A stretch of 52,704 bases of DNA from an uncultured Flavobacteriaceae bacterium (lineage in GTDB: Bacteria > Bacteroidota > Bacteroidia > Flavobacteriales > Flavobacteriaceae). The notes under the pieces are model-generated. The model made no database searches and was not told the DNA's origin. It worked only from the letters and a program-made list of their open reading frames with translations. The stretch is taken from NCBI GenBank assembly GCA_913030895.1, contig CAJWGK010000006.1:1-52704 (forward strand), read 5' to 3'. Position numbers and translations under genes: made by a program. Positions 23,601 through 43,694 of the stretch are shown here, piece after piece (within the stretch, counting starts at the first letter, position 1; each line of letters starts with the position of its first letter).

Positions 23601-25397
23601 ATGGAAATATCACAAAATACTACTGTTAAAGGAGGGGAATTCATCATCAAAGAGTACAGTCCCGTCGACATTTTTACCCCTGAAGATTTTTCAGAGGAAC
23701 AAATTATGATGAAAGAAAGTGTCCAGGAATTTATAGACCGGGAAGTATGGCCTAATAAAGAACGCTTTGAAAAAAAGGATTATGAATTAACCAAAACCTG
23801 CATGCAAAAGGCAGGAGAACTTGGCTTTCTGGCCGTTGGCGTTCCTGAAGAATATGGTGGCATGGGTATGGGATTTGTCTCTAGTATGCTGGTCTGTGAT
23901 TACATATCTGGTGCTACTGGTTCGTTTTCAACCGCCTTTGGCGCTCATACAGGAATTGGAACGCTACCGATTTTGCTTTATGGAAGTGAAGAACAAAAAC
24001 AAAAATACGTTCCCAAATTGGCAAGTGGCGAGTGGTTTGGATCCTATTGTCTCACAGAACCTGGAGCAGGCTCAGATGCCAATTCGGGAAAAACAAAAGC
24101 GGTATTATCTGAGGATAAAACACACTATTTGATTTCTGGACAAAAAATGTGGATTTCCAATGCTGGTTTTGCTGACTTATTAATTGTTTTTGCTCGGATT
24201 GAGGATGATAAAAGTATTACTGGTTTTATTGTGCCCAATGATCCAAGTAATGGCATTACAATGGGTGACGAGGAAAACAAACTCGGTATTCACGCTTCAT
24301 CAACTCGTCAAGTATTTTTTAACGAAACAAAGGTGCCTGTTGATCATATGTTAGCCTCGCGTGGACAAGGTTTTAAAATAGCTATGAATGCGTTAAATGT
24401 CGGAAGAATTAAACTAGGTGCAGCATGTTTGGATGCACAGAGAAGGGTAATTGACAATGCTGTTCGGTATGCCAACGATAGAATCCAGTTTAAAACTCCG
24501 ATTGCAAAATTTGGTGCAATCAAAGAAAAAATTGCCCGCATGGCAAGCTCCTGTTATGTTAGCGAGTCGGCCAACTACAGGGCAGCTTATGATATTGAAA
24601 CTAAAATAAAAAACTTGCTAGCTGAAGGACACGATCAGCAAACAGCAGAACTAAGGGGGGTTGAAGCGTTTGCTATTGAATGTTCAATAATTAAAGTAGC
24701 AACATCTGAGGATATACAAAACTGTTCAGATGAAGGCATTCAAATTTTTGGAGGTATGGGGTTCTCAGCCGATACACCAATGGAATCCGCTTGGAGAGAT
24801 GCTAGAATTGGAAGAATATATGAGGGTACCAATGAGATTAATAGAATGTTATCCGTTGGAATGTTGTTGAAAAAGTCAATCAAGGGAGAGTTGGATCTTA
24901 TGAATGCTGTTATGAAGGTAGTAGGAGAAATAACCGAAGGAAAAGCTACAACATTAGAGAACCCTGTGAGTGAATTAGCGGAAGAACTCATCAAGTTAAA
25001 AGACCTAAAAAAAGTATTTCTGATGATTGCGGGTTCGGCTTTCCAAAAGTATGGGACAGAGTTCGACAAGCACCAGCAGACACTCCTTGGGCTTTCAGAT
25101 ATGTTGATTGAAATCTATTTTGCTGAATCGGCTTTATTGAGAACAATAAAAAATATTGACCGTGGTTTAGATATGACCTATCAAACCGATATGTCAAAAT
25201 TATATCTTTTTGAGGCTACCGAAATCGTGCTGAAAAGAGCCAAAGAAATCATTGGAAATATTTCGGATGGAGATGCCAAAAAAACACTTCTTAAGGGGGT
25301 TCATCGTTTGTGTAGATATGATGATTTACCAGATATAATCAGTTTAAAAAATCGTATTGCTGATAAAGTGATTGCTGAGAATAAATATTGTTTTTAG
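23601..25397 (+). CDS. acyl-CoA dehydrogenase family protein
   Basis: 'YCLTEPGAGSDANSGKTKAV', 'GGMGFSADTPMESAWRDARIGRIYEGTNEINRML', extended C-terminus. Confidence 0.95.
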   Translation: MEISQNTTVKGGEFIIKEYSPVDIFTPEDFSEEQIMMKESVQEFIDREVWPNKERFEKKDYELTKTCMQKAGELGFLAVGVPEEYGGMGMGFVSSMLVCDYISGATGSFSTAFGAHTGIGTLPILLYGSEEQKQKYVPKLASGEWFGSYCLTEPGAGSDANSGKTKAVLSEDKTHYLISGQKMWISNAGFADLLIVFARIEDDKSITGFIVPNDPSNGITMGDEENKLGIHASSTRQVFFNETKVPVDHMLASRGQGFKIAMNALNVGRIKLGAACLDAQRRVIDNAVRYANDRIQFKTPIAKFGAIKEKIARMASSCYVSESANYRAAYDIETKIKNLLAEGHDQQTAELRGVEAFAIECSIIKVATSEDIQNCSDEGIQIFGGMGFSADTPMESAWRDARIGRIYEGTNEINRMLSVGMLLKKSIKGELDLMNAVMKVVGEITEGKATTLENPVSELAEELIKLKDLKKVFLMIAGSAFQKYGTEFDKHQQTLLGLSDMLIEIYFAESALLRTIKNIDRGLDMTYQTDMSKLYLFEATEIVLKRAKEIIGNISDGDAKKTLLKGVHRLCRYDDLPDIISLKNRIADKVIAENKYCF

Positions 25398-25440: not shown

Positions 25441-26335
25441 TTATCGGTAATTATCTGTTTGTAGGTGTTTAAAAAAACCTCGCTGATTTCTTCTAAACTT
25501 ACTAAAATCGAACGTTAGAATAATTTCAAAGATTGAGGGGGAATGAACCTTTGCCATAGATCTTACTGGGAAGGAGTAGCTAAAACCAAATTCAAAGTTC
25601 TCTAGAGACAGGGCAACAGAAAACCCAAGATTATTGAGGTTGAATTGATCTACATTTGAGATTTTTTGGTTCAATCCAACGGAAAATTCACCCATTCTGA
25701 TCTCCTCAATTAAGTTTAGATATAGGCTCTTATTAAAACTAGTCAAAGAAAAATAAGTAAACAGATAAGTGTGTCTGGGAAGAAAGCTTTGATCGTACGG
25801 ATTTACGTCAAACTCATAACCCGCTTGAAAGGATAAACTTATTGGCGTACTGTATTTTTTTTCCTTATTTAGACTTGTATTGGGTCGATTTAAGTGTTTC
25901 AATGAAAGACCAAGGATATAGTCTTCATTGTGAAGTATAAAAGATGCACCCAAATCAAAATAGTTAACATTTTCAATTATTTCTCCCAAAGGGTCAATGG
26001 TTTCAGTATTGATAAAACCAGTGGTAACATCAAGTTGATCCTCAAAAACTAAACTCTCTTTATCAAATTGATTGTTTCCTACCCCAAGTGTTAATGCTGG
26101 AAGAAAATAGGTCCTATTGGAAACCTGAATTTTATATACATAGGTGAATTTGAATATATTAATAGAAAGGTCATTGGAAACTACTTTGAGAGAATTGATA
26201 TCAAACCCCAAACTAAATTTACTGCGGTCAAAGGATAGGGTACCAAATAAGTATTTGTTATCCATCTCAGAGCTTTGACCCAAGGACAAAGAATTATAGA
26301 GGAGACCAACTTTATTTAGATTCTTGATTTGCCCC
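25441..26335 (-). pseudogene. N-terminally truncated PorP/SprF-like outer-membrane protein
   Basis: Collinear with the intact paralogue at 42659-43678 from its 'NQLNRVGVLFNSL' region to the C-terminus 'QIDNYY' (here 'QTDNYR'), but lacks signal peptide and N-terminus; ORF-track start 26361 lies out of frame inside the upstream adhesin fragment. Confidence 0.75.
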
Positions 26336-26914
26336 AATAATTTCATTCCACACCAAACCATCCAGTGAACTTATCCACTGATATCTTGAATCATTTGCTG
26401 CAAGAGCTACCCCCTTTACGGTTGCATTGGTATTGGATTCCAGTAAGAGGTCTGGATAGCCATTACAAATATTAATTATTGATTTATCTACCGGATTATC
26501 TTTAAAAAAAACTACACCTCCATCTTCGATCTCATTTAAAGTTAACACCAATGAAGCTGTCCCAGTGTCACCCCCCTTTTCCAGGGAAACCGTTACCCTA
26601 TCTCCATCAAAAAACAAGTCCGTATGGGTAAAAGTTGAAAGGTTATTAGGGCCTTGCTTTAAAATCCCGTTGATGTAAAACATGTAATTAATTCCATTAT
26701 TAGGTGTTGCCGTAAAGGTGATGGCATCTCCCTCGCAAAAAGTATCACTCGATACAGAACTTGTCAGTGAAGTCGTGACTGTTGCAGTGATACTTTCAAC
26801 GGTAAAATTCGGATTTTCTAGATGGGTGACTTCGCTAAAAACAAATATGAGCGGAGCTAAAAGGCATAAAGCCGTAAAGGAAATTAAGTAGGATTTCTTC
26901 ACAATATGGGGCAT
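26312..26914 (-). pseudogene. N-terminal fragment of a secreted Ig-like repeat protein (adhesin), lacking a T9SS C-terminal domain
   Basis: Signal peptide plus one Ig-like domain 'DTFCEGDAITFTATPNNGINYMFYINGILKQG' resembling repeats in the 4932-aa protein, then 'YQWISSLDGLVWNEIIGAN' followed at once by out-of-frame SprF-like sequence and a stop. Confidence 0.7.
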
Positions 26915-27094: not shown

Positions 27095-27718
27095 TTATTT
27101 CTTGTTTTCTTTACCTTCTTTACTATAACGTATTAAGCTGTCAATTATTTTACCTGATCGGTAAGATGTTTTCTGTTTAATTTTTCCACTGGGGTAATAA
27201 TCTATCCAATTTCCATCTCGGTTCCCATTAGAATCAAATTCAATTTGTTTTCTCATTTTACCATTCGAAAAATAAAATTTACTCTGACCGAATAAAATTC
27301 CTTTTTTAAATCCATTCTCTTCCTTTAGAAGACCATTGTTCCAAAAAGTCTTTCTTACACCATCAATCCTGCCGTTTGAATAAAACAGCTGCTCAGCAAT
27401 TTTGCCATTGGAATAATAGTTGATTTTTTCACCATTGAGAATGCCAGAATGGTATTCAGCAAATATTTTTTTACTGCCATTGGTATAAAATGCTTTGTAT
27501 ACTCCGTTTATCTTTCCGTTTTCCGTTGTAAAAGACTTAATTGTGTTTCCTTTTTCATCAAATTGAATAATCTCTCCTGAGAATAACTTTCCTTGAAAAG
27601 TATAAGAAGAGTCACGTGAAGTTCTTATAACATTTATATCCTCAATCTTGACAATTGTTTTTTTGTTAACACATCCTATGATGCTAATCGTTAAGAGTAC
27701 CGCTATGCTAAGTCTCAT
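27095..27718 (-). CDS. MORN-repeat lipoprotein (YwqK-type)
   Basis: Lipobox 'LLTISIIGC'; repeated 'YxNGxxKxxxxFxxGxxxG' units. Confidence 0.85.
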   Translation of the reverse strand: MRLSIAVLLTISIIGCVNKKTIVKIEDINVIRTSRDSSYTFQGKLFSGEIIQFDEKGNTIKSFTTENGKINGVYKAFYTNGSKKIFAEYHSGILNGEKINYYSNGKIAEQLFYSNGRIDGVRKTFWNNGLLKEENGFKKGILFGQSKFYFSNGKMRKQIEFDSNGNRDGNWIDYYPSGKIKQKTSYRSGKIIDSLIRYSKEGKENKK

Positions 27719-27860: not shown

Positions 27861-30800
27861 GTGGGGAGATTTAAAAGTTTATTCATACTATCGATAATAT
27901 TATCGATTTGTTTTACCAATACCATGTTGGGTCAACAAACCAATTTAGAGTTTGATGAAGTTCGCATTACTGGTGAAACATCCCCATACGAGATATGTAT
28001 TGGTGAGGTACCAGCATTTGAATTGAGGCTCAGACTTCAGGATCCATCGAGTACCCTCACACTAAATGCAACCAATACACTTTCCTTTTTTGCAATTGTC
28101 ACCACTCCTGAAAACACAATTTCAAAAACGATTACTGGTGTAACCACCTTCAATGAGGGATCAAGTTTAGAAAGTTCTGGAGATGAAACCAAATCATTTA
28201 GTTGGCCAACAACAGGGCCTAACCTCATTCAATTACTCGATGAAGGAGCTACCAGTATCTTTTTTGGCGTCAGAATAGAATCGGGAACATTTACTGACCC
28301 GAATCAGTTAGACGCTGATGATTATGCTGCATCATACACCCTTAACCTGCAAACCTTATCCAATCCTCCGATTCTCACACCTACATCCTCATTGGGAGCT
28401 TTTGATCCAGTTACTGACGCTGTGGACTTATGTTCAGGACAGAGTATAACCATTAGCGTTACAGCAGGGTACACTAATTACCAAATGATTAGAACAGTTT
28501 CGGATACCGGACAAGTTACACAAGGCGCAATAACTACTTCTAACACTTTTACACTAACTGACGTTCATCCTGGTGGTGAAGAATTTAAAATTCGTGTTTT
28601 CAATCAGGATTGTCCACAAGATACTTCTACTTACTATATTAATGTTGTTAGTAATACGACGATCAATTTGTCGGCAAACAACAATCCCTCCTGTTCGGGA
28701 GAAAATCAGAATTTCACCGCTACAGGTTCAGGAAACTGGTTTGAGTTTTTAGTTTTATCTGGTGGGGTTTTAAGCTTACAGATTGCTTCGGAATCCAATA
28801 CTTGGAGCTCAACGAGCTTGCTCAACAATGATGTTGTTTATGTGAGAAGTTATTTTAGTTCCTCTTCCGTTTGTTATAGTGAAGATAGTGCTACAATAAT
28901 TATTAATAGTATAACTGGTAATAACTCAATCACTGGAAATCAAACGATTTGTCCCGATGAAACTCCTGCTTTACTTCAGTCTGATGAGGTTCCCTCTGCG
29001 GATCGAGCTGGAGCAACATCAAGTTTTGTTTGGGAATTAAATAACGGGACTGGATGGCAGACCATCAACGGCACCAATGGTGCCACCTTCCAACCTCCAG
29101 CATTAACTCAAACGACGGCCTATAAAAGGTATTTAAAAAGCGAATTAGGTACTTCAGAATGTCTGAGCTTGGAATCAAATATTGTTACGGTCACTGTGGA
29201 AGCATCACCGACTGTCAGTATATCCTCTGGTTTTTCTCAAAATATTATCTGTGATGATGAACCATTCACATTAACGGCCTCAGCAGGCGGAATTACTGGT
29301 GCAACTTATGAGTTTATAATCAATGAGTCCGATAGCCAGACCATAACGGCTACCAGCACAGAGACCTCTGTCGATTTTAATCCTGCAGCACCATATACCG
29401 CAACAACAACAGTAAGAGTTATTGTTACAACACCCTCAGGATGTTCTACCACTGCATCGCTTACAGTTATAGAAAACCTGTTAACACCTGGAAGTATTTC
29501 AGGAACCCAATCTGTTTGCCTTGAGGGAGTCCCCACTCAATTAACAAGTGTAGCAACTGCAAGCTCATCAAATGCTAGTGCTACGATAAGTTACCAGTGG
29601 CAAAGTTCTCCAAATGCAGATTTTAGTTCTCCCGTAATCAATATAGAAGGGGCTACGGGTGAAAATTTCCAGCCAGGATCTATCACGCAAACTACCTATT
29701 ATCGCAGGTTAGATATGTCCACAATTGAAAGTAAAACCTGTAGTGCGATAACAAATAAATTAACCATTGAAGTAAAAGAAGGGCCAGGAGGTCAATTGCT
29801 TATCAACGGAGAGGATATAGCCGCAAAAACACTTTGTCCAAGTGACGTTCCAGTATTTACTGTTAGCGGAGGAACTGGTCAGTCCTTCGAATTTAGAAGA
29901 GATGGAGCGGTAGTCGAAACCAATGAATCTGGAACTTACAGTCCCGATGATTTATCAGGAATTGAAAAGATTGATGTGGTCGTTTACGACCTACCACTAG
30001 ATGGAGGCAACATTGACCCTGAAGCTTGTTTGTCCCTTACCAACTCAATTACTGTGACAGTTCTCAACGAAGTAAATGTTGAGTTAGTCACTACCAATGC
30101 AATAAACAATGTATTTTGTGCTGGTGAAAATGTGATTTTTACGGTTAACGAACCAATAGGAAATAATTTTGAATTTATAATCAATGATCAGCAAATTGCA
30201 AGTGGAGCCATAAATACCACAAGCACTACTCTACTCTCAGATGATGATGAAGTCACCGTTATCGTCACCCTTCCGTCCGGATGTACTGCAATCACCTCTA
30301 TAACATTAACAGAAAATGGAATTACGCCTGGGAGTATTTCAGGAACTCAGTCTGTATGCCTTGGTGGTATACCAACTGAGATTACAAGCTTAGCTACACC
30401 GACGACTTCAAGTGGTTTGGCTAGCGTAACTTATCAATGGCAAAGTTCTGCCAACGCTGACTTCACCGCCCCGGTTATCACTATTGATGGTGCAAACAAT
30501 GTGAATTATCAACCAGGTGTAATAAACGAAACTACCTATTACCGTCGGGTCGATATTTCAACATTAAATGGGAAATCCTGTTCAAATACTACAAATAAAG
30601 TAACGGTAGCTGTTAAAAATGAACCTGGAGGTCAACTGTTAATTGATGGTGAAAACCTCGCTACCAAGACAATATGCCAAAACGACATTCCTTTTCTATC
30701 AGTTGATGGAGGAACTGGACAATCATTTGAATTTAGAAGAGACGGAACAGTGGTAGAAACCAATGAATCCGGATCCTACTCTCCAGATAATTTAGCTGGA

Positions 30801-33800
30801 ATAGAAACCATTGATGTAATCGTTTATGACCTTCCGCTAGATGGGGGTAATCTCGATCCTCAAGCTTGTACAACCTTTACCAATTCAATAACGATTACCA
30901 CAGAAGCACAAGCCAATGTTGAACTTGTTGTTACTGGTGCGATTAACAGCGTATTCTGCCCAGGGGATAATGTAGTTTTTACTGCCAATGTTGACGATCC
31001 GTTTGTCAACAACTATCAATTTACCTTAAATGGTCAACAAATTTATGACGGAGCAAGTGCTACGACCAGCTCCACAAATCTTTCTGATAACGCGGTTGTA
31101 TTTGTAACGGTTACCCTTGCCAATGGATGTACGGCTGTTTCCTCTGTCACCATGATTGAAAACACAATCACACAAGCTGGTGAAATTACTGGTACGCAGT
31201 CCATCTGCTTTAACGATCAACCTGACGAAATTGCCAGTATCACTGGTGCTACTACTGGAAACGCAAGCGCTTCGATTAGCTACCAATGGCAGAGTTCGCC
31301 TAATGCTAATTTTGATCCTCCTGTGATTGATATCGCAGGTGCGAATGGTGAAAACTATACCCCGGACCCTCTTGCGGAGACTACCTATTTTAGAAGGATG
31401 GCATTATCTACGCTTTTTGGTAAAACTTGCTCGTCAGCGACTAATGCTATAGAAGTTGAAATTAAACCAGATACCGGAGGTCAGCTACTAATAGATGGCA
31501 ATGCTTTAAGTAATGCTACTCTGTGTCCCGGAGATTTACCAGTTCTGAGTGTTAGCGGAATTGATTTGAACAATAAATCTTTTGAGTTTAGAAAGAATGG
31601 TACCGTAGTTGAAACAAATGAAACAGGGAGTTTTAGTCCTGACGGCTTAACGGGAACCAATCGTTTTGATGTTTTGGTGTATAACCTTCCTCTAAATGGT
31701 TCGGCTATAGACGCTGACGCTTGTTCTTCACTCACTAACTCAATCACAATCGTGATGGAGGAACAAGTCAATGTACAAATGGTAGTCACTGGGGCGGTGA
31801 ACAACGTGTTCTGTCCTGGGGACAATGTGGTCTTTGAGGTTATTGATCCTGTTGGGGCAACTTACGCGTTCAGTGTCAATGGTGTAAACCAGCAAACCTC
31901 TACCTCCAATCAATATTCCTCTACCCTACTAACGAATACTGCAAACATTGAGGTTACTGTCGTTTCGGCTGGGGGATGTTCGAGTTTGGCGAGTGTAACT
32001 TTAGTAAAAAATGAAATTGATTCAGCAGGAATAATTAGTGGAACTCAGGTCATTTGTTACGGAGAAACCCCTGATGAGATAACTAGTGTTGCAACTGCAA
32101 CCCACAGCAATCCATTAGCCAATATATCGTATGAATGGAGAACTTCTTTAGATGGAGCTTCTTATACAGCTACTGGAGCAACAGGGGAAACTTATCAACC
32201 TGGTCCTTTAACGCAAACGACCTATTTCCAGAGATTTGCAATTAGTGAACTTAGTGGTAAAATATGTGAACGGCCAACCGCAACTGCTATCGAGGTTCTG
32301 GTTACTGACAACCTAAATGGGGGCTTAATCAATCCAACAGATCCTCAGGTTTTATGTTTTGGACTAACTGTACAGCCTACAACACTTACAGTTTCTGGTG
32401 GAAACACAGGAGCTTTCATAGAGTATCAGTGGGAGATTTCTACTACTGGAAATAGTGGTTGGACCAGTATAAATGGTGCCAATGGTGCATCATACACTCC
32501 CCCGACATTAACTTCTACACAAACATTCTACTACAGAAGGGTCACCAAAGTCAATGGCGGGGGTGATGGCTGCGAAGAAGTAAGTGATATTCACTATATA
32601 CAGATAAATGATATTCATCCTGGATCAATTAATAATAATGCTACTCAAACTTATTGCTTTGGTACAGATCCCGAGCCTATATCAAGCGTCAGTGAAGCTA
32701 ATTCTTCTTTTGGACAAATTAACTATCAATGGGAGTATAAAACCGAAACACAAGAATGGGCGGACATCAATGGCGCTACAAATAACAACTATGACCCGGG
32801 GCCACTGACAGAGAATACTTGGTTTAGAAGATCAGTCACTGCTGAATTGAATGGGACTCAATGTTTCCAATCTACCAATGAAATTTTAATTACGATTCTA
32901 CCTGAGTTAGTGACAGGTGAGATTTTATCCAATCGAACAATCTGTGAAAACACACTTACCCCCGATCTGGTTCTTAATGGTGCTGCTACCGGTCCAGGGA
33001 TTACCTATCAGTGGGAAAATTCAATTGATAATGAAAATTGGGATATTATTGCAGGAGAAGTCAATGCAACACTTACCTTTAGTGAAGTAGCGACTCAAAC
33101 TATATACTATAGAGTTATTGTCACCAGTACGGTTAACAATCCTCAAATTCCTGACCCAAACCAAATGCAAATCAGTTTGTCAAGAACTAGTAACCCACTC
33201 GCTATAGGAGAAGATTATGTGGTTTATATAGGATCTGGAACCTATTCGTTTACCACAACAGGTGCAACTAGCGATACTGACAGCATTGGACTTGGGTTAG
33301 CAAACAAAATAACGAATGATGCACCAGGAATTTCAGCTTCATATAGCGCTGCAGCCAAATTAATTTCATTGCAACCCCGTCAAAGTCAAATTTCGGTGGG
33401 TATGCCCGATGCACCCTCACATAACCTGAGGGTATTGTCCTCAGTAACTGGAGAAGGATGTGTTGCCATTTCTGATGCTATAGTAGTCAATATTGAGCCT
33501 TCATCTTCGTTGGTACAAGTATCAGGAGATCCTAACTCAACAAATAATTTATGTCCAAATGATACTATTGGAATAAATCCTGGTGATCGCGACGCGATTG
33601 TATTTGAATGGGGAGGCGGGGCTACCTCAGTAATGATAGAAAATCTTAATCCTGCATACACTCCTAGCACTAACGGTGGAAATATAACACCCAGAGCAGA
33701 TCTTGGGGTCGGGTGGTATGAAGTCACCGCTCCAGATAACAGGGTAACAATTACTGGAACTGCAGGTCCAACCGATTTCTTTACCGTAAGAACACAGGGA

Positions 33801-36800
33801 AGTGGATGTCTTGAAGAGTCAATTAACTATTCCATCATTGTCACACCTCAGGCAATCGCTCCTCAAGTAATTATGAAAGACAATAATTCTATTTATAATG
33901 CAGTAATATACAATGGAGTAACAGACAAGTGGTATAATAACACCATTTGTCAAGAAAGAGCTACGATAGAGGGAGAGCCAACTACTGTCCCTACTGACTT
34001 TTATACTTGTTTTGTAGACAATAGCTTTAATCAATTATACAATACTTTCGAGTGGAAAATTGAACCTGAATCCGCAGGATCAATCTCTGCACAAGAACGA
34101 CAAAAAGCCAAGATAAAAATCACTTCAGCTACTGCAACGATTACGGGAGGAGCTACCTACATTGTGGTAGTAAACGGACAACAAATTCCCGTCGTTTCAG
34201 CTGTTGATGATACCACTGACGACTTGGGTCAGCGTTTAGCAGCGGCAATTCAACCTAGCGATATTGTCAATGCGAGTTATGACAATGAATTAAATTTGCT
34301 CACTGTAATTGCTGAACAGACAAGTCCCCCAGCTCCGCTTTACACATTCACTAGAATAAATCCCACCACAGCAGGAAACAATGCAGTACTTGATGTACCT
34401 GCAATATCAGTATCAACACAACAAATGACAGTAAATTGGGATCCCAATTACTCGGGAACTGCAACCATAAGTGTAAGGACAACTGGCTGTGGAACACCCT
34501 CCAATTGGTATAACGTAAATGTTGATGTTGTGGAAGAAACTGTCCCAAGCTTAGAGGCCAGTGATCTATTAGCGCCTATTGACATGAGTGACCTCAATGC
34601 GGAATTTGGCGCCATACTGTGTAACGGATCCTTCACAGGAGTTTTGCCAGATTGTCAAACAACAAATAGAACGCCAAGTACTCAATTTTTTACTGCAAGT
34701 AATGCTGCAACAAATGATTACGGCGCCTTGTTATGGGAAATTGAGGGTATTACCGCTGGTAACCCCGACGTACCTGTACCAGGGGTAATTGACGAAAATA
34801 CTGGTGTGGTGAATTGGAATAGTGGCTATTTTGGAGAGTTTCAAATTAAAGTCACCCCAGTATCATGTGATGCAGTAACAGGAACAACCGTAATCTCAAC
34901 TTTTAATATTGCAGAAAGAAATACTGATTTACCATTAATCGCTCCGATTGGAGGGGATTCAGTATTACCAAAGTGTCCTATTCCAGCTGCAGGTTTGGTA
35001 ACTACTACTTTAAGAAACTTTGACAACTATCCAGTAAGATGGTTTGTAGATGACTTAAGTGCCATAAGAACTGGAGGAGAAGACAATCAAAATACCGTAA
35101 TTAGTATCGCAAGTAGAGAGCTTCAAGCTGATCTAGGGTCTGATGATAAAGAATTGACTCTTAATTGGCAGCAAGGATACTCAGGAATTTTAGTCGTAAG
35201 AGCAATTCCAAGAGACTGCCCAGGAGCAGAACGAAAATATCCCGTTATTATACCTGGTCCTGCTGATATTCAACTCATTCCAGGTAGCAATAGTAACCAG
35301 CTAGTATGTGAGGGTGATCCGATTCAAAACATCAGTTATTCATTAAAAGGGGCAGCCACTGGAGTGGTTTCTCAAACCAGTATGAATCTACCAGATGGTA
35401 TTACGCCTTCAAGACAAGACTTTGTTCAAATAACCCGTTTACGACTTACAGAAAACATTAACCTCCCCATAACACCCTCAAATCGCTACGTAACCACCAT
35501 TGATGGTTTGGATTATTCTTATACCGTTCAAAATGGTGACGACCTTGATGGTGTTGGAAATGGAATATTGAATGCAATTCAAGGGGTGATTTCATCTACC
35601 TATGATGATAATTTAAATATATTGACTGTTGAGGGAGCTATCCCAGGTCAAAGCTTTAGTATTATTGTCAACCGACCCATTGACCCAGGCGTGAATTTCA
35701 CAGTGATTGACTCAACTGAGGTACTTACAATGATAACCCTCTCTGGAAACCCAGAAGGAGAAGCCACAACCTATAATTATACACTAACAACTACAGTTCC
35801 TGATGATTCCTGTACTGAAGATTCGATTAGTGGGTTTATAACAATCAGCCCATCCTCAAGCATACAGCTTACCGTAGGAAATACAATAACAGAAATATGT
35901 GATGACGGAGACCTTCCTCTGATTCAATTCACGGTTGAAAATGCATTAAGCGCAGATATTGATGACGCAGAATTACCAGCAGGCGTGACAGATTCATTTG
36001 CCGGGGGAATTCTTACCATTAGTGGTAGACCCAATATAAATCCTGTGCAGCCAACTTCCTTTGATTATAATGTAGTAACAGTTAATAATGTAAATGGATG
36101 TAAACCCGAAGCGTCATTTAGCGGTAGAATTATTGTTAACCCTTCACCGATAATCAGTGTTGTAGATGCCACTACTGTCAATCAAAACGTGTGTGCATTC
36201 CAAGAGATTACTCCCATAGAATTCACGGTTAATAACCCAGCTTTTGGATTAGAATTTGTCCCTGATGAAACCAATCTTCCAGATGGAGTAAATGGCGAAT
36301 TATTTGCAAGACAGCAAATAACACAAATCAATTTGGGTGGAACTGATGGAGCAGCTGGAACTATAAATGTGGTCATTAATAATCAAGAAACATTTACCTT
36401 CTCTCCCACTGATACTTCCACCTTTGATGAAGCGGGTAATCAACTTGCAATTGATATAGGGTTAAGTGCAAATTATGAAGCCACTTATAATTCCCCTGTT
36501 TTAGAAATCAGGCATGCATTGGATGGCATTCCATTTTTAATATCCACAAATAAAACTGGAACAAACCTAACCATATCGGAACCCAATACCATTCAGACCT
36601 CCACGTTTTTTATCATATCAGGTACTGCCTCAGAAACTGTCAATAACCCAACAGAATTCAGTTATGTTCTTAGACCTATAGGTCCAGCATGTACTGCCCA
36701 GACTTCAAATATCAGCGGAACGATTATTGTTGATCCTTCCAGTTTCGGTGTGTTTGATCAAACGAGTGGCCCAGAGCAACAAACAGTGTGTGATGAGCGA

Positions 36801-39800
36801 GCTATTCAACAAATTCGTTACGATATATTTGGCGCTACTCAAGTACTAGAGGGAGCTGACAATCCAGATTGGCTTCAATTCTCTTTTGATAATATTACCA
36901 AAGTACTCACTATTGATGGTACACCCCAAATTGGAAATACCCTTCAGCAATCCTTTGATTACAATTATAGTCTAAGCGGTAATTTCCTCTGTGGAACCAG
37001 TACGTTTACTCTTTCGGGTATAATTACAGTTAATCCTAAAGATCAATTAACATTGACTACTGCAGCAGGTACGGATAGCCAAGTCGTTTGTGCAGGTGGA
37101 GACCCAACATTAAGCGCCATCGAAACCATCACTTACCAGTTTGGTGGAAGTACTATTTTTGCCAACATTTCTGAAACTTTACCAGAAGGAGTAAATGTTG
37201 CCTTCGACGCGGTTTCAAATACTTTAAGTATAGTTGGCGTGGTTACCGCTGCTGTTACACAAACTACCCTGTATGACTATACCATAACCACCACAGGAAC
37301 ATGTGACCCAGTCACGCTCAATGGAAGTATTTCCGTCGTTCCTGCCGCTACTATTTCATTGACCTCCGGTATTACTAGTTTGGATCAAGAAATATGTGAC
37401 AATACTTCGATAACTTCTATTACATTTGATTTAGGAGGTTCGGCAGTGAATTATACTTATGATGGATTCCCACCTGGTCTTAACTTTGCACTAAATGGTA
37501 ATAATGCAGTCATTTCAGGGCAACCAAACCTCAACAATACTAGCCCACAGACCTATACTGTAACTGTTTCCATAGTTGGCAGTGGTAGTTGTCAAGAAGA
37601 ATTTTTAAGTGGAGAAATCACCATTCTACCCAAAGATCAGTTAACCCATATCTCAGGAGCTAAAAATCAAGTGATCTGTAATGGAGATGATCCTGCAAGT
37701 CCAAGTATAGATCCAATTGTATTTCAAATAGGCGGCGGTGCTGATTTTGCCTACGTAACAGGGCTTCCTGACGGTTTAATTGGGACTTTCACCTCTGCTG
37801 ATAATCGGCTAACCATCGATGGAAACCCAACATTAACGATAACACAAACTACTGATTTCTCTTATAATGTAATCACAACAGGGGCGTGTAGTAACACCAC
37901 TGATTTTGGTCAGATTAGGGTAAATCCAAATTCTTATATTGTTTTAACCTCGAATGCTTCAACTACAAATCAGGTCAATGATAGTGGTGTATGCGTAGGA
38001 GATGAAATAGTTCCTATAACCTTCACAATTGGAGGTCAAGCCAATGGCATCGACAGCTCATCTATACCAAGTTGGTTAACCCTCCAAAATACTGGTGTTA
38101 GTGCTGATCTGAATGAAAAGTTTTATCGAATTACTGGGTCGCCAAATACCAACGACACGGAAATCACTGTCTATACCTTTACCATTTCAACAACAGGAAA
38201 CCAATGCGGTCCAGAGGACAGCACTACTTTTAGCATTCAAGTCAATCCTAAACCTACCTTTAGTGATTTATCAGCTATTGCAGTTCAAGACATTTCATGT
38301 AATGGTTTGGCAGATGGAAGAATTATTGTACCAGAGAATTTAAATACTTTCCTTTCAGGAGGAGTTGGTTCTAACAGGGCTCAAGTCAATACACTCACAG
38401 TATCCGGAACATTTGATGCAAATGACAGAATAAGAATTCTTATAAATAATACCACAACCTACGAATATGTTATAAAATCCCTAGCCTTCGACAACCCTGA
38501 TGCTGAGGATAATATTGCTATTGCAATTGGATTAGCACAACAGATAAATAATAATATACCTGCTGAAGTTCCTGTTACTGCAGACACAAACCAAAATGAG
38601 GTAACCTTGACTTCAGATCAATCAGGTTTACCTTTCACGGTTGATTTACTAGATGGTAATGGGGTGCAATCTGCTCAAAATGGTGAAATTATTAATGAAG
38701 CAACCATTACGAACCTTACGCTAGATTACTCACTAATCTGGGAATATCGAAAGGAATCTTCATCTACTGCTTCAATGATAACATACAATGAAATTGGTGA
38801 GTCCGGCTTTTATGATCTAACTGTTGTATTGACAGGGGGCTGTACCTCCACAACCGAGACTTTCGAGATAACGGAGCCAGAGCCACTATCCATATCTAAA
38901 CCAGATACTTGCGGAGAAACAATTACGGCTCAAGCCTCTGGTGGAACCGCTAATTATATTTATACACTTCGGAACTTAACCACAAATAGTAGTTATGAGT
39001 TCCCTAATGCACTTCCTGCATCACAGCCCGTTGCATTTAATACCGCAGGTAGGGTGGAGATCGGTGATCTTATAAGGGTTGATGTGCGCGATGGCGCTGG
39101 ATGTGTAGTTCCAAGTGATGTGGTTACAATGGCAGGAACATTATCGATCACACTGGCAGCTAATACAAGAGTTGTCCATGATTATTGTAACGAAAACCCC
39201 GATGTTGGATTTGGTAGTATAGAACTAAATTATGGAGGGCAACTAGCAGTGACAGGTGGGTCAAACAATTACACCTATGCATGGTCAAACCCTGCTATTG
39301 GCTATACGAACAGCACAATGAATATTAATAATCTTCTTCCTGGAGTTTATAATTTAGAAGTAACAGATAATGAATTCGCCCGATGTATCTTAAGGGAGAG
39401 CTTCACCGTTCTGGGTGCAGACCCATTAGACGTCGCGCCCACCCCAGGAAACGCACCCAATGCAGTAAGCGGTGTTAGCAGTAATACTGCCATTGATGAA
39501 AAAATTTCCCTCAATTGTAGCACGTCGGCGCTGGTTCTTGAAGTTCAGGCAAGCGGAGGATTAAACTCTAATTATATTTATAACTGGGATAGAAATGGTA
39601 ACAACATTGGAAGTGGAGGAAATAAACTAACGGTTGACCCACCTGTGTCGGGAATATATACTGTTGAAGTTTCAATTGATGTCTCCTCCCTAGATGCACC
39701 TTTCGGTTACGACCAAAGTGACTTAGCTTGTACAAAAATTTATTCCTTTGAAGTTCTAGTCCCTAACGAATTGTCTGTTGTTGAGGATACTACCCAAAGA

Positions 39801-42659
39801 ATAGTGCCTGCTTGTCCGGGTGACTTTGCTCAATTGGTCTTTAATGTAAATGGAGGAGTCAATGGAGGTGGTCCCTACACCGTTAGGTTTGATAATGGAT
39901 TAAGTGGAACTTCTTCTGGACCTTCAGACAGAGAGATTATCATAACTGGAATTGATACAAGTAACCACAGTAGTTTTTCCAGTTACACTGTAACAGGTGG
40001 GGATACAAGTTGTTCTAAAGCAGGCAATCTTGTTTCACAAATAAGCCTCCCGAATTATAGCGAAATAGATATTCAAGCGACACCACAAAACATTGACTGC
40101 TCTGTTGGTCAAGAAGGAAACGTTACTTTCTCTTATACGGGCAATCCTAATCTAAACAGTTTGTCCATTCAACTTAAATCAACATTATTAAACTTCAACT
40201 ACTTTAATACTTGGCAAAACTTATCCTCTGGAGCAGGAGACGCAATCATTGAAATTGACCAAGCAGGAACTTATGAATACAAAATTTTTGGTACACCCGC
40301 TTCTGGAGCAACCTCCAACACAAACGTTTGTGAATTGGGTTCAGGAACCGTTGAAGTTCTAGATGAAGGCAACAATCAAATACTAATTCTAGATGTCAAA
40401 AAAGAAGATCCACCATGTGGATCCGATAGCGGTGGTTCCATATCACTCATTCTAGATGAGAATACCATTACGCCACAAATGTCTATAAAATGGCAAAAAA
40501 TAACTGCAATAACCTCAACCGTAACTTCATCAGGAAGTACGGAAACAACTGAGGTTATCACACAAGTTTGGCAATATATACCTTCGCTAGAAGGTAATCT
40601 ATCTATACAAAATCTTGCGAAGGGGTCTTATCGTGCTATTATCAACAGTAACAATCAGGGTAGTTGCGGAAACAACGAAATCATTACTAACACACAGGTA
40701 GTTGGAGGAAGAGGATTTGAAGTGCTTAATTTAAGGTATGTTGAAGCGCCCCCAGCAGATCCCAACGTAGACAGCTGTTCAATAGATAACTTGAGATATA
40801 ATATCTTATTTAGCCTGGTAAATGAAAAGATAAACGGTGGAAATATTACTATTGAGGTTACCAAAATCAGTAGTAACGGCGTTGGCTACAGTCAAATTTT
40901 CTTGGCTTCAAATTCCTCATCAGACGTCAGTAAAATCACTTGGCCATTGACCTCAGACAGATCCGGTAACTATGCCATCAAAGGCGTACCATTTGGTGAT
41001 TACAGCATTAGAATTAGTGAAACAGGGAGCGCAACAGCTACGCTCTGTGAACTCAACCAAATATTAATTATCCCTGAGCTTACTGAATTAGAATATATTG
41101 GCGAATCCTCTTTCGTACTGGATAAATGTGATCGAGAAGTCGAGATAAGTGCAGTAGTTCAAGGTGGCGTTCCTTTTGTAGGAATTGACGGAGAGCCATT
41201 CTACAAATACAACTGGCAGTTCGTTACTGGTTCTGGAGCTGATCAAATCATCTTCGAATATTCAGGGAAAAACATCACCGTTAATGATCCCGGTACCTTA
41301 TTTTTAACCGTTCAGGATAGTAAGGGATGCGAAAAAGACGTTACAGATCAAGTTCAAATTGAAATCCTCGATGAACTTAGTCCATTTATTCTTGAGCCAG
41401 ACTTAGTGGTAGGTCCTCAGTCCAACTCTTTGACAGTTTTTGCTGAAGAGCCTTCTTGTGATAACCCCAATAGAGACGATGGAAAAATTAAGTTCAATGT
41501 AATTGGGGGAACACTAAATAACTCAAATGTCCAATACCCCTATAGTGTAGTGTGGGAAAAATATGACGCTGGTACTTCTTCCTATCTTGAAATGGATGGA
41601 TCTAATGGTTTATCTAACCTTTCCAACCAGGAGTTTGCCAATAACTTAACACCAGGGCAATATAGAGTGACTGTTGAACCGATTAATTGGACTTGTACTT
41701 TAAATTCAATCGACTCTGGAATCGGAACAGTAAAAGTGATTACAGTCCCACAAAACCAAGACTTAGTCATTACTAATGCCCCACTAATTGATGTGAGTGA
41801 ATACAATTTCACCAATGGTTCAAGCACCATTTGTGAATCTGGTGGATCGGGTTATTTATATGTCAACGTATTTAATAATTACGATGGAAATATTGAATTC
41901 TATTATTCTGATGAAAACAATCCAGTTCCCTATCAGCAATTGGACAATACAACCTTTAAGGTAGAGATAAGTGAGTCCTTTGAAATAGCTGATCTCATCA
42001 TAAAAAACGAGGAAGGTTGTAGGGTAAGTGCAGAAATAGATCTTCAAATTGGTAAGCCAAACTTTACCTTCAGTTCATTTAACTCCCAAGTATCAGGGAA
42101 TTCTTCTGATACCCAACTCCCGATAATTCTCGCTAGAGAAGAAGTTACGTTTACCAATACTTCTACAGGAACATACAGTTATGCAGAATGGGATTTTGGA
42201 GATGGTGGACCAGTAGAGCGAATCTTTAGTCAAATTGGAACTGCATCTCCAGTAACCAATATTTATGGTGTATCCGGCACCTATTACCCCAGACTCAGAA
42301 TTTACAACGCACTGGGATGTTACAAGGAAGAATCAAAAACATTAGTGGTTGGAAAGGGTTACAACATAATGGTTCCAAATGTATTTACACCAAACAATGA
42401 CACCTACAATGACCGATTCACACCATTGTTTAGTGGATTCAAGTCCTTTCAAATGACGATATACGATTACCGTGGTAATTTGATTTATACAGAAGAAAAA
42501 GTAATAGATCCTAGTACCCCACTCCAATCAATGAATATAACGGGATGGGATGGAGACACACAGATTGATTCTCCCTATTATATCTATTCAATTTATGGAA
42601 CGACCTTATTTGGAGATATCGAGGTCCAAAAAAGTGGAACATTTGTTATTATAAGATAA
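27861..42659 (+). CDS. giant (4932 aa) secreted modular Ig-like/SprB-repeat protein with type B T9SS (gliding-motility) C-terminal domain; GTG start
   Basis: Signal peptide MGRFKSLFILSIILSICFTNTMLGQQ; many Cys-containing Ig-like repeats; PKD 'AEWDFGDGGP'; C-terminus 'NIMVPNVFTPNNDTYNDRFTP...YIYSIYGTTLFGDIEVQKSGTFVIIR'. Confidence 0.93.
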   Translation: MGRFKSLFILSIILSICFTNTMLGQQTNLEFDEVRITGETSPYEICIGEVPAFELRLRLQDPSSTLTLNATNTLSFFAIVTTPENTISKTITGVTTFNEGSSLESSGDETKSFSWPTTGPNLIQLLDEGATSIFFGVRIESGTFTDPNQLDADDYAASYTLNLQTLSNPPILTPTSSLGAFDPVTDAVDLCSGQSITISVTAGYTNYQMIRTVSDTGQVTQGAITTSNTFTLTDVHPGGEEFKIRVFNQDCPQDTSTYYINVVSNTTINLSANNNPSCSGENQNFTATGSGNWFEFLVLSGGVLSLQIASESNTWSSTSLLNNDVVYVRSYFSSSSVCYSEDSATIIINSITGNNSITGNQTICPDETPALLQSDEVPSADRAGATSSFVWELNNGTGWQTINGTNGATFQPPALTQTTAYKRYLKSELGTSECLSLESNIVTVTVEASPTVSISSGFSQNIICDDEPFTLTASAGGITGATYEFIINESDSQTITATSTETSVDFNPAAPYTATTTVRVIVTTPSGCSTTASLTVIENLLTPGSISGTQSVCLEGVPTQLTSVATASSSNASATISYQWQSSPNADFSSPVINIEGATGENFQPGSITQTTYYRRLDMSTIESKTCSAITNKLTIEVKEGPGGQLLINGEDIAAKTLCPSDVPVFTVSGGTGQSFEFRRDGAVVETNESGTYSPDDLSGIEKIDVVVYDLPLDGGNIDPEACLSLTNSITVTVLNEVNVELVTTNAINNVFCAGENVIFTVNEPIGNNFEFIINDQQIASGAINTTSTTLLSDDDEVTVIVTLPSGCTAITSITLTENGITPGSISGTQSVCLGGIPTEITSLATPTTSSGLASVTYQWQSSANADFTAPVITIDGANNVNYQPGVINETTYYRRVDISTLNGKSCSNTTNKVTVAVKNEPGGQLLIDGENLATKTICQNDIPFLSVDGGTGQSFEFRRDGTVVETNESGSYSPDNLAGIETIDVIVYDLPLDGGNLDPQACTTFTNSITITTEAQANVELVVTGAINSVFCPGDNVVFTANVDDPFVNNYQFTLNGQQIYDGASATTSSTNLSDNAVVFVTVTLANGCTAVSSVTMIENTITQAGEITGTQSICFNDQPDEIASITGATTGNASASISYQWQSSPNANFDPPVIDIAGANGENYTPDPLAETTYFRRMALSTLFGKTCSSATNAIEVEIKPDTGGQLLIDGNALSNATLCPGDLPVLSVSGIDLNNKSFEFRKNGTVVETNETGSFSPDGLTGTNRFDVLVYNLPLNGSAIDADACSSLTNSITIVMEEQVNVQMVVTGAVNNVFCPGDNVVFEVIDPVGATYAFSVNGVNQQTSTSNQYSSTLLTNTANIEVTVVSAGGCSSLASVTLVKNEIDSAGIISGTQVICYGETPDEITSVATATHSNPLANISYEWRTSLDGASYTATGATGETYQPGPLTQTTYFQRFAISELSGKICERPTATAIEVLVTDNLNGGLINPTDPQVLCFGLTVQPTTLTVSGGNTGAFIEYQWEISTTGNSGWTSINGANGASYTPPTLTSTQTFYYRRVTKVNGGGDGCEEVSDIHYIQINDIHPGSINNNATQTYCFGTDPEPISSVSEANSSFGQINYQWEYKTETQEWADINGATNNNYDPGPLTENTWFRRSVTAELNGTQCFQSTNEILITILPELVTGEILSNRTICENTLTPDLVLNGAATGPGITYQWENSIDNENWDIIAGEVNATLTFSEVATQTIYYRVIVTSTVNNPQIPDPNQMQISLSRTSNPLAIGEDYVVYIGSGTYSFTTTGATSDTDSIGLGLANKITNDAPGISASYSAAAKLISLQPRQSQISVGMPDAPSHNLRVLSSVTGEGCVAISDAIVVNIEPSSSLVQVSGDPNSTNNLCPNDTIGINPGDRDAIVFEWGGGATSVMIENLNPAYTPSTNGGNITPRADLGVGWYEVTAPDNRVTITGTAGPTDFFTVRTQGSGCLEESINYSIIVTPQAIAPQVIMKDNNSIYNAVIYNGVTDKWYNNTICQERATIEGEPTTVPTDFYTCFVDNSFNQLYNTFEWKIEPESAGSISAQERQKAKIKITSATATITGGATYIVVVNGQQIPVVSAVDDTTDDLGQRLAAAIQPSDIVNASYDNELNLLTVIAEQTSPPAPLYTFTRINPTTAGNNAVLDVPAISVSTQQMTVNWDPNYSGTATISVRTTGCGTPSNWYNVNVDVVEETVPSLEASDLLAPIDMSDLNAEFGAILCNGSFTGVLPDCQTTNRTPSTQFFTASNAATNDYGALLWEIEGITAGNPDVPVPGVIDENTGVVNWNSGYFGEFQIKVTPVSCDAVTGTTVISTFNIAERNTDLPLIAPIGGDSVLPKCPIPAAGLVTTTLRNFDNYPVRWFVDDLSAIRTGGEDNQNTVISIASRELQADLGSDDKELTLNWQQGYSGILVVRAIPRDCPGAERKYPVIIPGPADIQLIPGSNSNQLVCEGDPIQNISYSLKGAATGVVSQTSMNLPDGITPSRQDFVQITRLRLTENINLPITPSNRYVTTIDGLDYSYTVQNGDDLDGVGNGILNAIQGVISSTYDDNLNILTVEGAIPGQSFSIIVNRPIDPGVNFTVIDSTEVLTMITLSGNPEGEATTYNYTLTTTVPDDSCTEDSISGFITISPSSSIQLTVGNTITEICDDGDLPLIQFTVENALSADIDDAELPAGVTDSFAGGILTISGRPNINPVQPTSFDYNVVTVNNVNGCKPEASFSGRIIVNPSPIISVVDATTVNQNVCAFQEITPIEFTVNNPAFGLEFVPDETNLPDGVNGELFARQQITQINLGGTDGAAGTINVVINNQETFTFSPTDTSTFDEAGNQLAIDIGLSANYEATYNSPVLEIRHALDGIPFLISTNKTGTNLTISEPNTIQTSTFFIISGTASETVNNPTEFSYVLRPIGPACTAQTSNISGTIIVDPSSFGVFDQTSGPEQQTVCDERAIQQIRYDIFGATQVLEGADNPDWLQFSFDNITKVLTIDGTPQIGNTLQQSFDYNYSLSGNFLCGTSTFTLSGIITVNPKDQLTLTTAAGTDSQVVCAGGDPTLSAIETITYQFGGSTIFANISETLPEGVNVAFDAVSNTLSIVGVVTAAVTQTTLYDYTITTTGTCDPVTLNGSISVVPAATISLTSGITSLDQEICDNTSITSITFDLGGSAVNYTYDGFPPGLNFALNGNNAVISGQPNLNNTSPQTYTVTVSIVGSGSCQEEFLSGEITILPKDQLTHISGAKNQVICNGDDPASPSIDPIVFQIGGGADFAYVTGLPDGLIGTFTSADNRLTIDGNPTLTITQTTDFSYNVITTGACSNTTDFGQIRVNPNSYIVLTSNASTTNQVNDSGVCVGDEIVPITFTIGGQANGIDSSSIPSWLTLQNTGVSADLNEKFYRITGSPNTNDTEITVYTFTISTTGNQCGPEDSTTFSIQVNPKPTFSDLSAIAVQDISCNGLADGRIIVPENLNTFLSGGVGSNRAQVNTLTVSGTFDANDRIRILINNTTTYEYVIKSLAFDNPDAEDNIAIAIGLAQQINNNIPAEVPVTADTNQNEVTLTSDQSGLPFTVDLLDGNGVQSAQNGEIINEATITNLTLDYSLIWEYRKESSSTASMITYNEIGESGFYDLTVVLTGGCTSTTETFEITEPEPLSISKPDTCGETITAQASGGTANYIYTLRNLTTNSSYEFPNALPASQPVAFNTAGRVEIGDLIRVDVRDGAGCVVPSDVVTMAGTLSITLAANTRVVHDYCNENPDVGFGSIELNYGGQLAVTGGSNNYTYAWSNPAIGYTNSTMNINNLLPGVYNLEVTDNEFARCILRESFTVLGADPLDVAPTPGNAPNAVSGVSSNTAIDEKISLNCSTSALVLEVQASGGLNSNYIYNWDRNGNNIGSGGNKLTVDPPVSGIYTVEVSIDVSSLDAPFGYDQSDLACTKIYSFEVLVPNELSVVEDTTQRIVPACPGDFAQLVFNVNGGVNGGGPYTVRFDNGLSGTSSGPSDREIIITGIDTSNHSSFSSYTVTGGDTSCSKAGNLVSQISLPNYSEIDIQATPQNIDCSVGQEGNVTFSYTGNPNLNSLSIQLKSTLLNFNYFNTWQNLSSGAGDAIIEIDQAGTYEYKIFGTPASGATSNTNVCELGSGTVEVLDEGNNQILILDVKKEDPPCGSDSGGSISLILDENTITPQMSIKWQKITAITSTVTSSGSTETTEVITQVWQYIPSLEGNLSIQNLAKGSYRAIINSNNQGSCGNNEIITNTQVVGGRGFEVLNLRYVEAPPADPNVDSCSIDNLRYNILFSLVNEKINGGNITIEVTKISSNGVGYSQIFLASNSSSDVSKITWPLTSDRSGNYAIKGVPFGDYSIRISETGSATATLCELNQILIIPELTELEYIGESSFVLDKCDREVEISAVVQGGVPFVGIDGEPFYKYNWQFVTGSGADQIIFEYSGKNITVNDPGTLFLTVQDSKGCEKDVTDQVQIEILDELSPFILEPDLVVGPQSNSLTVFAEEPSCDNPNRDDGKIKFNVIGGTLNNSNVQYPYSVVWEKYDAGTSSYLEMDGSNGLSNLSNQEFANNLTPGQYRVTVEPINWTCTLNSIDSGIGTVKVITVPQNQDLVITNAPLIDVSEYNFTNGSSTICESGGSGYLYVNVFNNYDGNIEFYYSDENNPVPYQQLDNTTFKVEISESFEIADLIIKNEEGCRVSAEIDLQIGKPNFTFSSFNSQVSGNSSDTQLPIILAREEVTFTNTSTGTYSYAEWDFGDGGPVERIFSQIGTASPVTNIYGVSGTYYPRLRIYNALGCYKEESKTLVVGKGYNIMVPNVFTPNNDTYNDRFTPLFSGFKSFQMTIYDYRGNLIYTEEKVIDPSTPLQSMNITGWDGDTQIDSPYYIYSIYGTTLFGDIEVQKSGTFVIIR
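29210..32310 (+). repeat. tandem ~840-850 bp (about 280 aa) repeat block, about 3.5 copies
   Basis: '(P/T)GGQLLI(N/D)G' recurs at about 29785, 30625 and 31473; each unit contains 'FEFR(R/K)(D/N)GxVVETNE(S/T)G', 'V(F)CxG(E/D)NVxF' and 'GxISGTQxxCxxxxPxxI(T/A)S'. Confidence 0.9.
35270..38250 (+). repeat. tandem series of about eight ~100-aa Ig-like units; two units carry an extra ~100-aa insertion
   Basis: Recurring pattern 'xxQxVCxGxxxxxIxFxxGG...LPxGVxxxxxxxxLTISGxPxxxxxxxxxFxYxxxTxGxC...GxIxVxP'. Confidence 0.8.
42361..42656 (+). other. T9SS type B sorting domain coding segment (gliding_CTERM type)
   Basis: 'VPNVFTPNNDTYNDRFTPLFSGFKSFQMTIYDYRGNLIYTEE...GWDGD...YYIYSI'. Confidence 0.92.
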
Positions 42660-43678
42660 TGCAAAACAACTTGAAAAAAATTCTATGTTTAATCCTTTTG
42701 ATTTTAGCCCCGATAGTGGTTAGATCCCAAGAAGATTACATCGTTAATCAAGTGAAATTTTTGCAAAAATCCAATGCAAGCTTTTTTGGAATGAATCAAC
42801 TGAACAGGGTTGGTGTTTTATTCAATTCCTTGAAAATTAATGATCAAAGTAACATGGACAACAAATATGCTTTTGGTTCCATCGCTTTTCAAGACAAAAA
42901 CTTTTCAATTGGGTTTGATGTTAATTCCTTCAAAATAAACGATATAGGATTGACCAACTCACTGGTTAATTTATCCTATATCTATAAAATCCAACTTTCC
43001 AATTACACTTATTTTCTTCCTGGAGTAACATTGGGGCTAGGAAGTTCAAGTATTAATGTTGAAAATTTAATTTTTGCAGATCAGCTAAATATGTCAACAG
43101 GATTCATAAGTACTGAATCAATTGATCCTTTGGCACCTTTAATCACTGATATCAATTTTTTTGACCTGGGTGCGTCATTCATCATTCATAATGAATTTTA
43201 TATGTTGGGCTTGAGTTTAAAACATCTTAACAAACCCAATATTTCATTTAATAAAGAGGTCCCTTATACAAAACCCATCCGTATCTCACTTCAAGCTGGT
43301 TATGAATTTGATATTAATCCGTTTGAAAGAGGTTTTCTTCCGCAATATTCTTACTTATACACATTTTTAAATTTAGTCAAGTATGGTGAGGCTCTTTATA
43401 TAGGATTAAACGAAGAATTTCAATTAGGTGAGTTTTCTGTAGGATTCACCCAACAAACCGGATCGGTTAACTCCTTTAGCCTAAATAATTTTGGAATGAC
43501 TGTAGGTTTAGCATTAGAGAATTTTGATTTTGGATTGCACTATAACTTCTCCAATCAAAAAGTAGGAAAAGTGTTTTCCCCAAGCCTATTTGAATTAAGT
43601 ATTATATTCGATTTTAGTATCTACAGAAGAAACAATCGAGGAATATATAAGAAATTACAGATCGATAATTATTATTAG
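42659..43678 (+). CDS. PorP/SprF family type IX secretion-associated outer-membrane protein
   Basis: Signal peptide ending 'VVRSQ'; beta-rich 'FDLGASFIIHNEFYMLGLSLKHLNKPN'; start overlaps the stop of the giant gene (TAATG). Confidence 0.92.
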   Translation: MQNNLKKILCLILLILAPIVVRSQEDYIVNQVKFLQKSNASFFGMNQLNRVGVLFNSLKINDQSNMDNKYAFGSIAFQDKNFSIGFDVNSFKINDIGLTNSLVNLSYIYKIQLSNYTYFLPGVTLGLGSSSINVENLIFADQLNMSTGFISTESIDPLAPLITDINFFDLGASFIIHNEFYMLGLSLKHLNKPNISFNKEVPYTKPIRISLQAGYEFDINPFERGFLPQYSYLYTFLNLVKYGEALYIGLNEEFQLGEFSVGFTQQTGSVNSFSLNNFGMTVGLALENFDFGLHYNFSNQKVGKVFSPSLFELSIIFDFSIYRRNNRGIYKKLQIDNYY

Positions 43679-43694
43679 AAAATTACTTTTCTAA
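43675..43694. terminator. AT-rich hairpin between convergent genes, possible bidirectional terminator
   Basis: TTAGAAAA-TTAC-TTTTCTAA, 8-bp perfect stem covering both stop codons. Confidence 0.4.

What the first reader, a model, noticed from the sequence alone, without database searches (positions are those of the whole stretch)
25441..26914. Deletion scar: collapsed adhesin + PorP/SprF pair
On the minus strand, an adhesin N-terminus (signal peptide, one Ig-like domain, start of a second) runs directly into the middle of a SprF-like gene in another frame. The junction is around 26322-26335 ('...GAAATTATTGGGGCAAATCAAGAATCTAAATAAAGTTGGT...'). The SprF part is collinear with the intact 42659-43678 protein but lacks its first ~45 residues and signal peptide. 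The simplest reading is one large deletion removing the rest of an adhesin gene, its T9SS C-terminal domain and the SprF N-terminus. Standard annotation would list these as two overlapping hypothetical/PorP-SprF genes.
Basis: partly seen in the sequence, partly recalled or inferred. Interest (0 to 1): 0.62.

Follow-up and report, generated by a model that had tools for sequence, protein, structure and literature searches.

The report
Deletion scar of an adhesin–shuttle pair
In a Flavobacteriaceae genome, a recent large deletion has almost erased an old surface-adhesin gene and its secretion-partner gene, leaving the first 199 codons of one joined out of frame to the last ~295 codons of the other; it is an ordinary case of gene loss, but relatives show which pair was lost and that this chromosomal site keeps changing its adhesin genes.

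Summary
On the minus strand, ORF 26312-26914 (adhesin N-terminus, Ig-like repeats) runs directly into a PorP/SprF reading frame (25441-26361) that lacks the ~45 N-terminal residues of an intact homologue. The switch lies at about 26318-26328. The deletion-scar reading is supported, with one correction: the SprF piece is not a broken copy of the intact pair at 27861-43678. It is the relic of a different pair ("a"). In the SprF tree it groups with a relative (G010) whose intact adhesin-SprF pair faces acyl-CoA dehydrogenase (AcdH) just as the relic does (95/94), apart from the clade of the intact pair "b" (95/95). Another congener (G012) carries a smaller, more decayed relic at the same place. 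Five others, including the two closest, have only 6-95 bp there. The scar ORFs have no new stops and no excess of changes at conserved sites, so if neutral the deletion is recent (at most ~0.05 substitutions/site, against ~1.0-1.3 at fourfold sites to the nearest relatives). Misassembly is unlikely: no repeat over 10 bp overlaps the junction in the window, no missing parts were found elsewhere in the incomplete assembly, and G012 is independent; read-level proof is missing. Ordinary gene loss; mild interest lies in adhesin turnover at this site.

The parts
26312..26914 (-). Truncated adhesin N-terminus (200-aa ORF): putative signal peptide, one Ig-like repeat and most of a second; homology ends at codon 199, followed by AAA TAA
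25441..26361 (-). Truncated PorP/SprF-type shuttle gene (306-aa ORF; true SprF homology from residue 12), lacks signal peptide and first ~45 residues; lineage 'a'
26318..26328 (-). Deletion junction: last adhesin-homologous base 26318, first SprF-homologous base 26328 to 26322; possible microhomology of a few bases, not proven
23601..25397 (+). Acyl-CoA dehydrogenase, convergent flank of the scar; conserved anchor across the genus
27095..27718 (-). MORN-repeat protein, other flank of the scar; directly follows AcdH in congeners with an empty slot
27861..42659 (+). Intact 4932-aa adhesin with a weak CHU_C/type B sorting domain match (pair 'b')
42659..43678 (+). Intact PorP/SprF-type shuttle of pair 'b'
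43683..44666 (-). CysK-type cysteine synthase (named from sequence), distal anchor of the locus; in G010 it directly precedes an adhesin gene

Best explanation
The two ORFs are the two ends of one former adhesin-SprF gene pair (pair 'a'). Shown by sequence: an adhesin 5' end is joined out of frame to the 3' seven-eighths of an SprF-type shuttle gene of a lineage that stands intact, adjacent to the same AcdH gene and in the same orientation, in a congener. Inferred: a deletion, probably of more than 10 kb if the lost adhesin was as long as its homologues, removed the rest of the adhesin with its C-terminal sorting domain and the start of sprF. The products should be non-functional: the adhesin stub can be exported by Sec but has no CTD for the T9SS, and the SprF stub has no signal peptide to reach the outer membrane. 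The neighbouring intact pair 'b' presumably carries on a related role. The deletion is recent on the lineage's own branch.
For: Homologies meet within ~10 bp. SprF tree: fragment + G010 95/94; with the G012 relic 96/98; intact 'b' genes form a separate clade, 95/95. G010:C15 has adhesin (C-terminal 1589 aa) > SprF (339 aa) facing AcdH, and G010:C4 has CysK > adhesin N-terminal 3146 aa to the contig end, as does G086 of another genus on the CysK side; L113 and G006:C7 also have adhesin > SprF facing AcdH. G012 has AdhN (80 aa, 56%) and the last 47 aa of SprF-a (68% to the fragment, 47% to 'b') between AcdH and MORN. G002, G008, G013, G014, G016 have 6-95 bp there. The fragment has 4 of 73 conserved columns changed, fewer than intact G010 (7 of 76), and pos1/2/3 differences of 0.29/0.20/0.58 to G010, so it evolved under constraint until recently; no new stop in 1482 nt bounds neutral time to ~0.05 subs/site, against ~1.0-1.3 at fourfold sites to G014/G016. 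The missing adhesin 3' end and a second sprF 5' end are not elsewhere in the held assembly.
Against: No close strain with the undeleted pair was found, so the deletion itself and its size are inferred. G010's adhesin N-terminus differs from the N-terminus left in G000 and G012, so the lost adhesin is not exactly that one. The G010 locus is split over two contigs, and joining them is an inference. The MAG is 86.6% complete and no reads were available.
Confidence: 0.87

Rival explanations
1. The junction is a misassembly: the pair is intact in the organism and the assembler jumped from the adhesin to the shuttle gene, dropping the repetitive middle.
For: Adhesin repeats often break short-read assemblies: several congeneric adhesins end at contig ends. 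No reads were available.
Against: The junction lies in unique sequence: the longest repeat overlapping it within the window is 10 bp and the 211-bp junction stretch has a single match in the genome. Missing parts were not found on other contigs. G012, a separate assembly, has a different relic at the same site, and close relatives have lost the pair altogether.
Confidence: 0.08
2. The two ORFs are a functional reduced pair: a short secreted Ig-like protein and a shortened SprF-like protein, translated by coupling or by a frameshift.
For: Both ORFs are free of internal stops and overlap by 50 nt; SprF conserved positions are kept.
Against: No signal peptide for the beta-barrel, no CTD on the adhesin stub. 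The SprF frame opens with 11 residues that are out-of-frame adhesin sequence. No other genome searched has such a short pair; G012 has a decayed relic and other congeners nothing. A recent deletion explains the open frames equally well.
Confidence: 0.04
3. The scar was inherited from the common ancestor of G000 and G012 and only eroded further in G012.
For: Both species carry relics of the same two ends at the same place.
Against: Breakpoints differ (adhesin codon 199 vs ~80; SprF residue ~45 vs ~292). G000's ORFs are intact although neutral decay since the split would have given many stops. Species between them in the AcdH tree have empty sites, though that tree is weakly resolved at depth.
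Confidence: 0.1

Closest known systems
PorP/SprF-family shuttle paired with a type B CTD adhesin (SprB-SprF, Fjoh_3952-Fjoh_3951 of Flavobacterium johnsoniae; PMC12618676, PMC9143113)
   Same: Shuttle-type gene directly downstream of a large adhesin gene in the intact homologues (G010 and pair 'b'); the fragment belongs to Pfam PF11751
   Different: In the scar the shuttle has lost its signal peptide and start, and the substrate has lost its middle and CTD
Pseudogene formed by a large deletion that joins two neighbouring genes (ordinary bacterial gene loss)
   Same: Two gene ends joined out of frame, intact orthologue in a relative at the same position, complete absence in sister species
   Different: Both ORFs still look open, so gene finders would call two genes
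Intact pair 'b' of the same window (27861-43678)
   Same: Paralogous adhesin repeats and SprF (53% identity)
   Different: Opposite orientation, separate SprF clade, accompanied by a MORN-repeat gene; it is not the source of the scar

Membership tests
PorP/SprF type IX secretion membrane protein | Matches PF11751 above its cut-off | tested here: met
   73.4 bits vs 22.3
PorP/SprF type IX secretion membrane protein | Matches TIGR03519 above its cut-off | tested here: inconclusive
   90.5 vs 90.55 bits; the intact paralogue scores 90.3
PorP/SprF type IX secretion membrane protein | Complete N-terminus with signal peptide | tested here: not met
   Homology starts at residue 45 of the intact protein; upstream codons are out-of-frame adhesin sequence
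T9SS type B CTD adhesin | C-terminal CHU_C / gliding-motility sorting domain | tested here: not met
   The 200-aa ORF ends inside its second repeat; no CTD hit
T9SS type B CTD adhesin | Adhesin-type Ig-like repeats and signal peptide | tested here: inconclusive
   Repeats met by homology to the intact adhesin, Pfam only sub-threshold; signal peptide judged by eye
Deletion scar (pseudogene pair) | Intact orthologous pair at the same place in a relative | tested here: met
   SprF orthologue and a neighbouring adhesin at G010:C15; adhesin N-terminus not the same
Deletion scar (pseudogene pair) | Both ends truncated, joined out of frame, missing parts absent from the genome | tested here: met
   limited by 86.6% completeness
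Deletion scar (pseudogene pair) | Junction real in the DNA, no product made | not testable with these tools
   No reads or expression data

The most novel reading that the evidence does not exclude
The AcdH-CysK site in this Flavobacteriaceae genus is an adhesin exchange site: an ancestral adhesin/shuttle pair facing AcdH was joined by a second pair in the opposite orientation together with a MORN gene, and the old pair was then lost repeatedly by independent deletions, so that species differ in their main surface adhesin.
Probability: 0.45. Interest if true: 0.42.

Novelty: new member of a known kind. Interest (0 to 1): 0.25.

Why it matters
It warns annotators that two plausible-looking overlapping genes are relics. 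It also shows, by comparison of congeners, different stages at one locus (intact, freshly deleted, eroded with foreign filler, gone), which makes turnover of large adhesin/shuttle modules traceable. It does not reveal a new kind of system.

Tried and rejected
Broken copy of the neighbouring intact pair: rejected by the SprF tree. Duplicate of the missing parts elsewhere in the assembly: none found. Repeat-mediated assembly jump: no repeat over 10 bp at the junction within the window. A proven microhomology at the junction: no ancestor sequence; 'AATCT' or 'AATCAA' are possible but not shown. Intact adhesin with the MPHIVKKSYL N-terminus: not found in ~300 relatives; only G012's relic shares it. 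Genome-wide scan with the SprF fragment in genome contigs found nothing. The 480-520 bp slots of G004, G007 and G020 hold a small lipoprotein-like ORF, not a relic of SprF. Promoter/terminator scan uninformative.

Full report
WHAT WAS CHECKED. The window is the whole contig C6 of a 1.97 Mb, 110-contig genome, 86.6% complete. The two ORFs of the finding exist as described.

ANATOMY. The 306-aa ORF (25441-26361, minus) is a PorP/SprF protein by Pfam. It aligns gaplessly with the intact shuttle protein 42659-43678 from that protein's residue 45 to its end (53% identity). Its first 11 residues are the adhesin gene read in the +1 frame. The 200-aa ORF (26312-26914, minus) starts with MPHIVKKSYLISFTALCLLAPLIFVF, a plausible signal peptide by eye, and contains one full and most of a second Ig-like repeat, homologous to the repeats of the 4932-aa adhesin at 27861-42659. 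Adhesin homology runs to codon 199 (base 26318) and SprF homology begins between 26328 and 26322, so the two meet or overlap with no filler.

THE LOCUS IN RELATIVES. In the window the order is AcdH>, <SprF-a fragment, <adhesin-a fragment, <MORN, adhesin-b>, SprF-b>, <CysK. Congeners G002, G008, G013, G014 and G016 have AcdH> and <MORN with only 6 to 95 bp between; G004, G007 and G020 have 480-520 bp there with an unrelated small lipoprotein-like ORF. SprF-b next to CysK is seen in G002, G007, G012, G013, G014, G015, G016 and G018. G010 has no MORN match and one SprF only, which directly follows an adhesin and faces AcdH; its CysK is followed by an adhesin of at least 3146 aa that runs off the contig. 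The natural but unproven join is CysK> adhesin-a> SprF-a> <AcdH. Outside the genus, G086 has CysK> adhesin> and L113 has adhesin> SprF> facing AcdH with two genes in between; G006:C7 has SprF facing AcdH directly but is probably a contaminant contig. So orientation 'a' is probably the older one.

WHOSE RELIC IS IT? In a maximum-likelihood tree the SprF fragment groups with G010's intact SprF (95/94), and with the 47-aa relic of G012 (96/98 for the three), while all SprF-b genes form another clade (95/95). The scar is therefore what is left of pair 'a' and not a collapsed duplicate of pair 'b'. The adhesin end is less well placed: its N-terminus is shared only with G012 (56% over 80 aa), while the G010 adhesin starts differently. 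Adhesin domains may have been shuffled, or the lost adhesin was a different one.

AGE. In the fragment 4 of 73 columns conserved in eight homologues are changed, against 7 of 76 in the intact G010 gene. Codon-position differences from G010 are 0.29/0.20/0.58. There was thus little time without constraint. With 4.1-4.4% of random changes making a stop, finding none in 1482 nt limits neutral time to about 0.05 substitutions per site (P = 0.05), whereas fourfold-site divergence from G014 and G016 is about 1.0-1.3. If the ORFs are unconstrained, the deletion is a late event on the G000 branch. The AcdH tree places G000 with G014+G016 (100/99), both with an empty slot, and G012 near G002, also empty, so pair 'a' was lost several times; deeper branches are weak and the count is not firm.

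HOW IT WORKED. In F. [quoted passage not shown] PorP-like proteins are proposed to anchor their substrates (PMC9143113). G010's adhesin C-terminus carries the CHU_C sorting domain (40.2 bits, cut-off 27). By inference pair 'a' was such a substrate/shuttle module. In the scar the substrate has no CTD and the shuttle no signal peptide, so neither can do that work.

ARTEFACT? The longest exact repeat overlapping the junction in the window is 10 bp, the junction stretch matches once in the genome, no second adhesin C-terminus and no further SprF was found, and a second species has a different relic at the same place. Misassembly is therefore unlikely but not excluded without reads.

VERDICT. Ordinary gene loss; interest is modest and rests on the locus-level turnover of adhesin/shuttle pairs.

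Noticed in passing
L046 (G012:C20) 3836-4031: The G012 relic has ~190 bp of filler between its two ends; a minus-strand frame matches Carbam_trans_C (E 1.4e-8) and another weakly matches Fe-superoxide dismutase C-terminus (E 0.014), as if pieces of other genes had been captured at the deletion.
   Followed up: partly
L051, L052, L054 (G004, G020, G007), between AcdH and MORN: A small lipoprotein-like ORF (121-154 aa; Lipocalin_4 only at E 0.08 in the one tested) occupies the slot where G000 has the scar.
   Followed up: partly
L048 (G006:C7): AcdH and MarR on this contig are only about 60% and 55% identical to the window's while CysK on G006:C51 is 93%; the contig is probably a contaminant from another genus.
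   Followed up: no
window 27861-42659: The adhesin of pair 'b' is 4932 aa with a GTG start; its CHU_C domain scores just under the Pfam cut-off (26.4 vs 27).
   Followed up: no
L020/L045 (G002:C9): G002 has a second, divergent SprF of the 'b' side at another place (55% to SprF-b, long branch).
   Followed up: no
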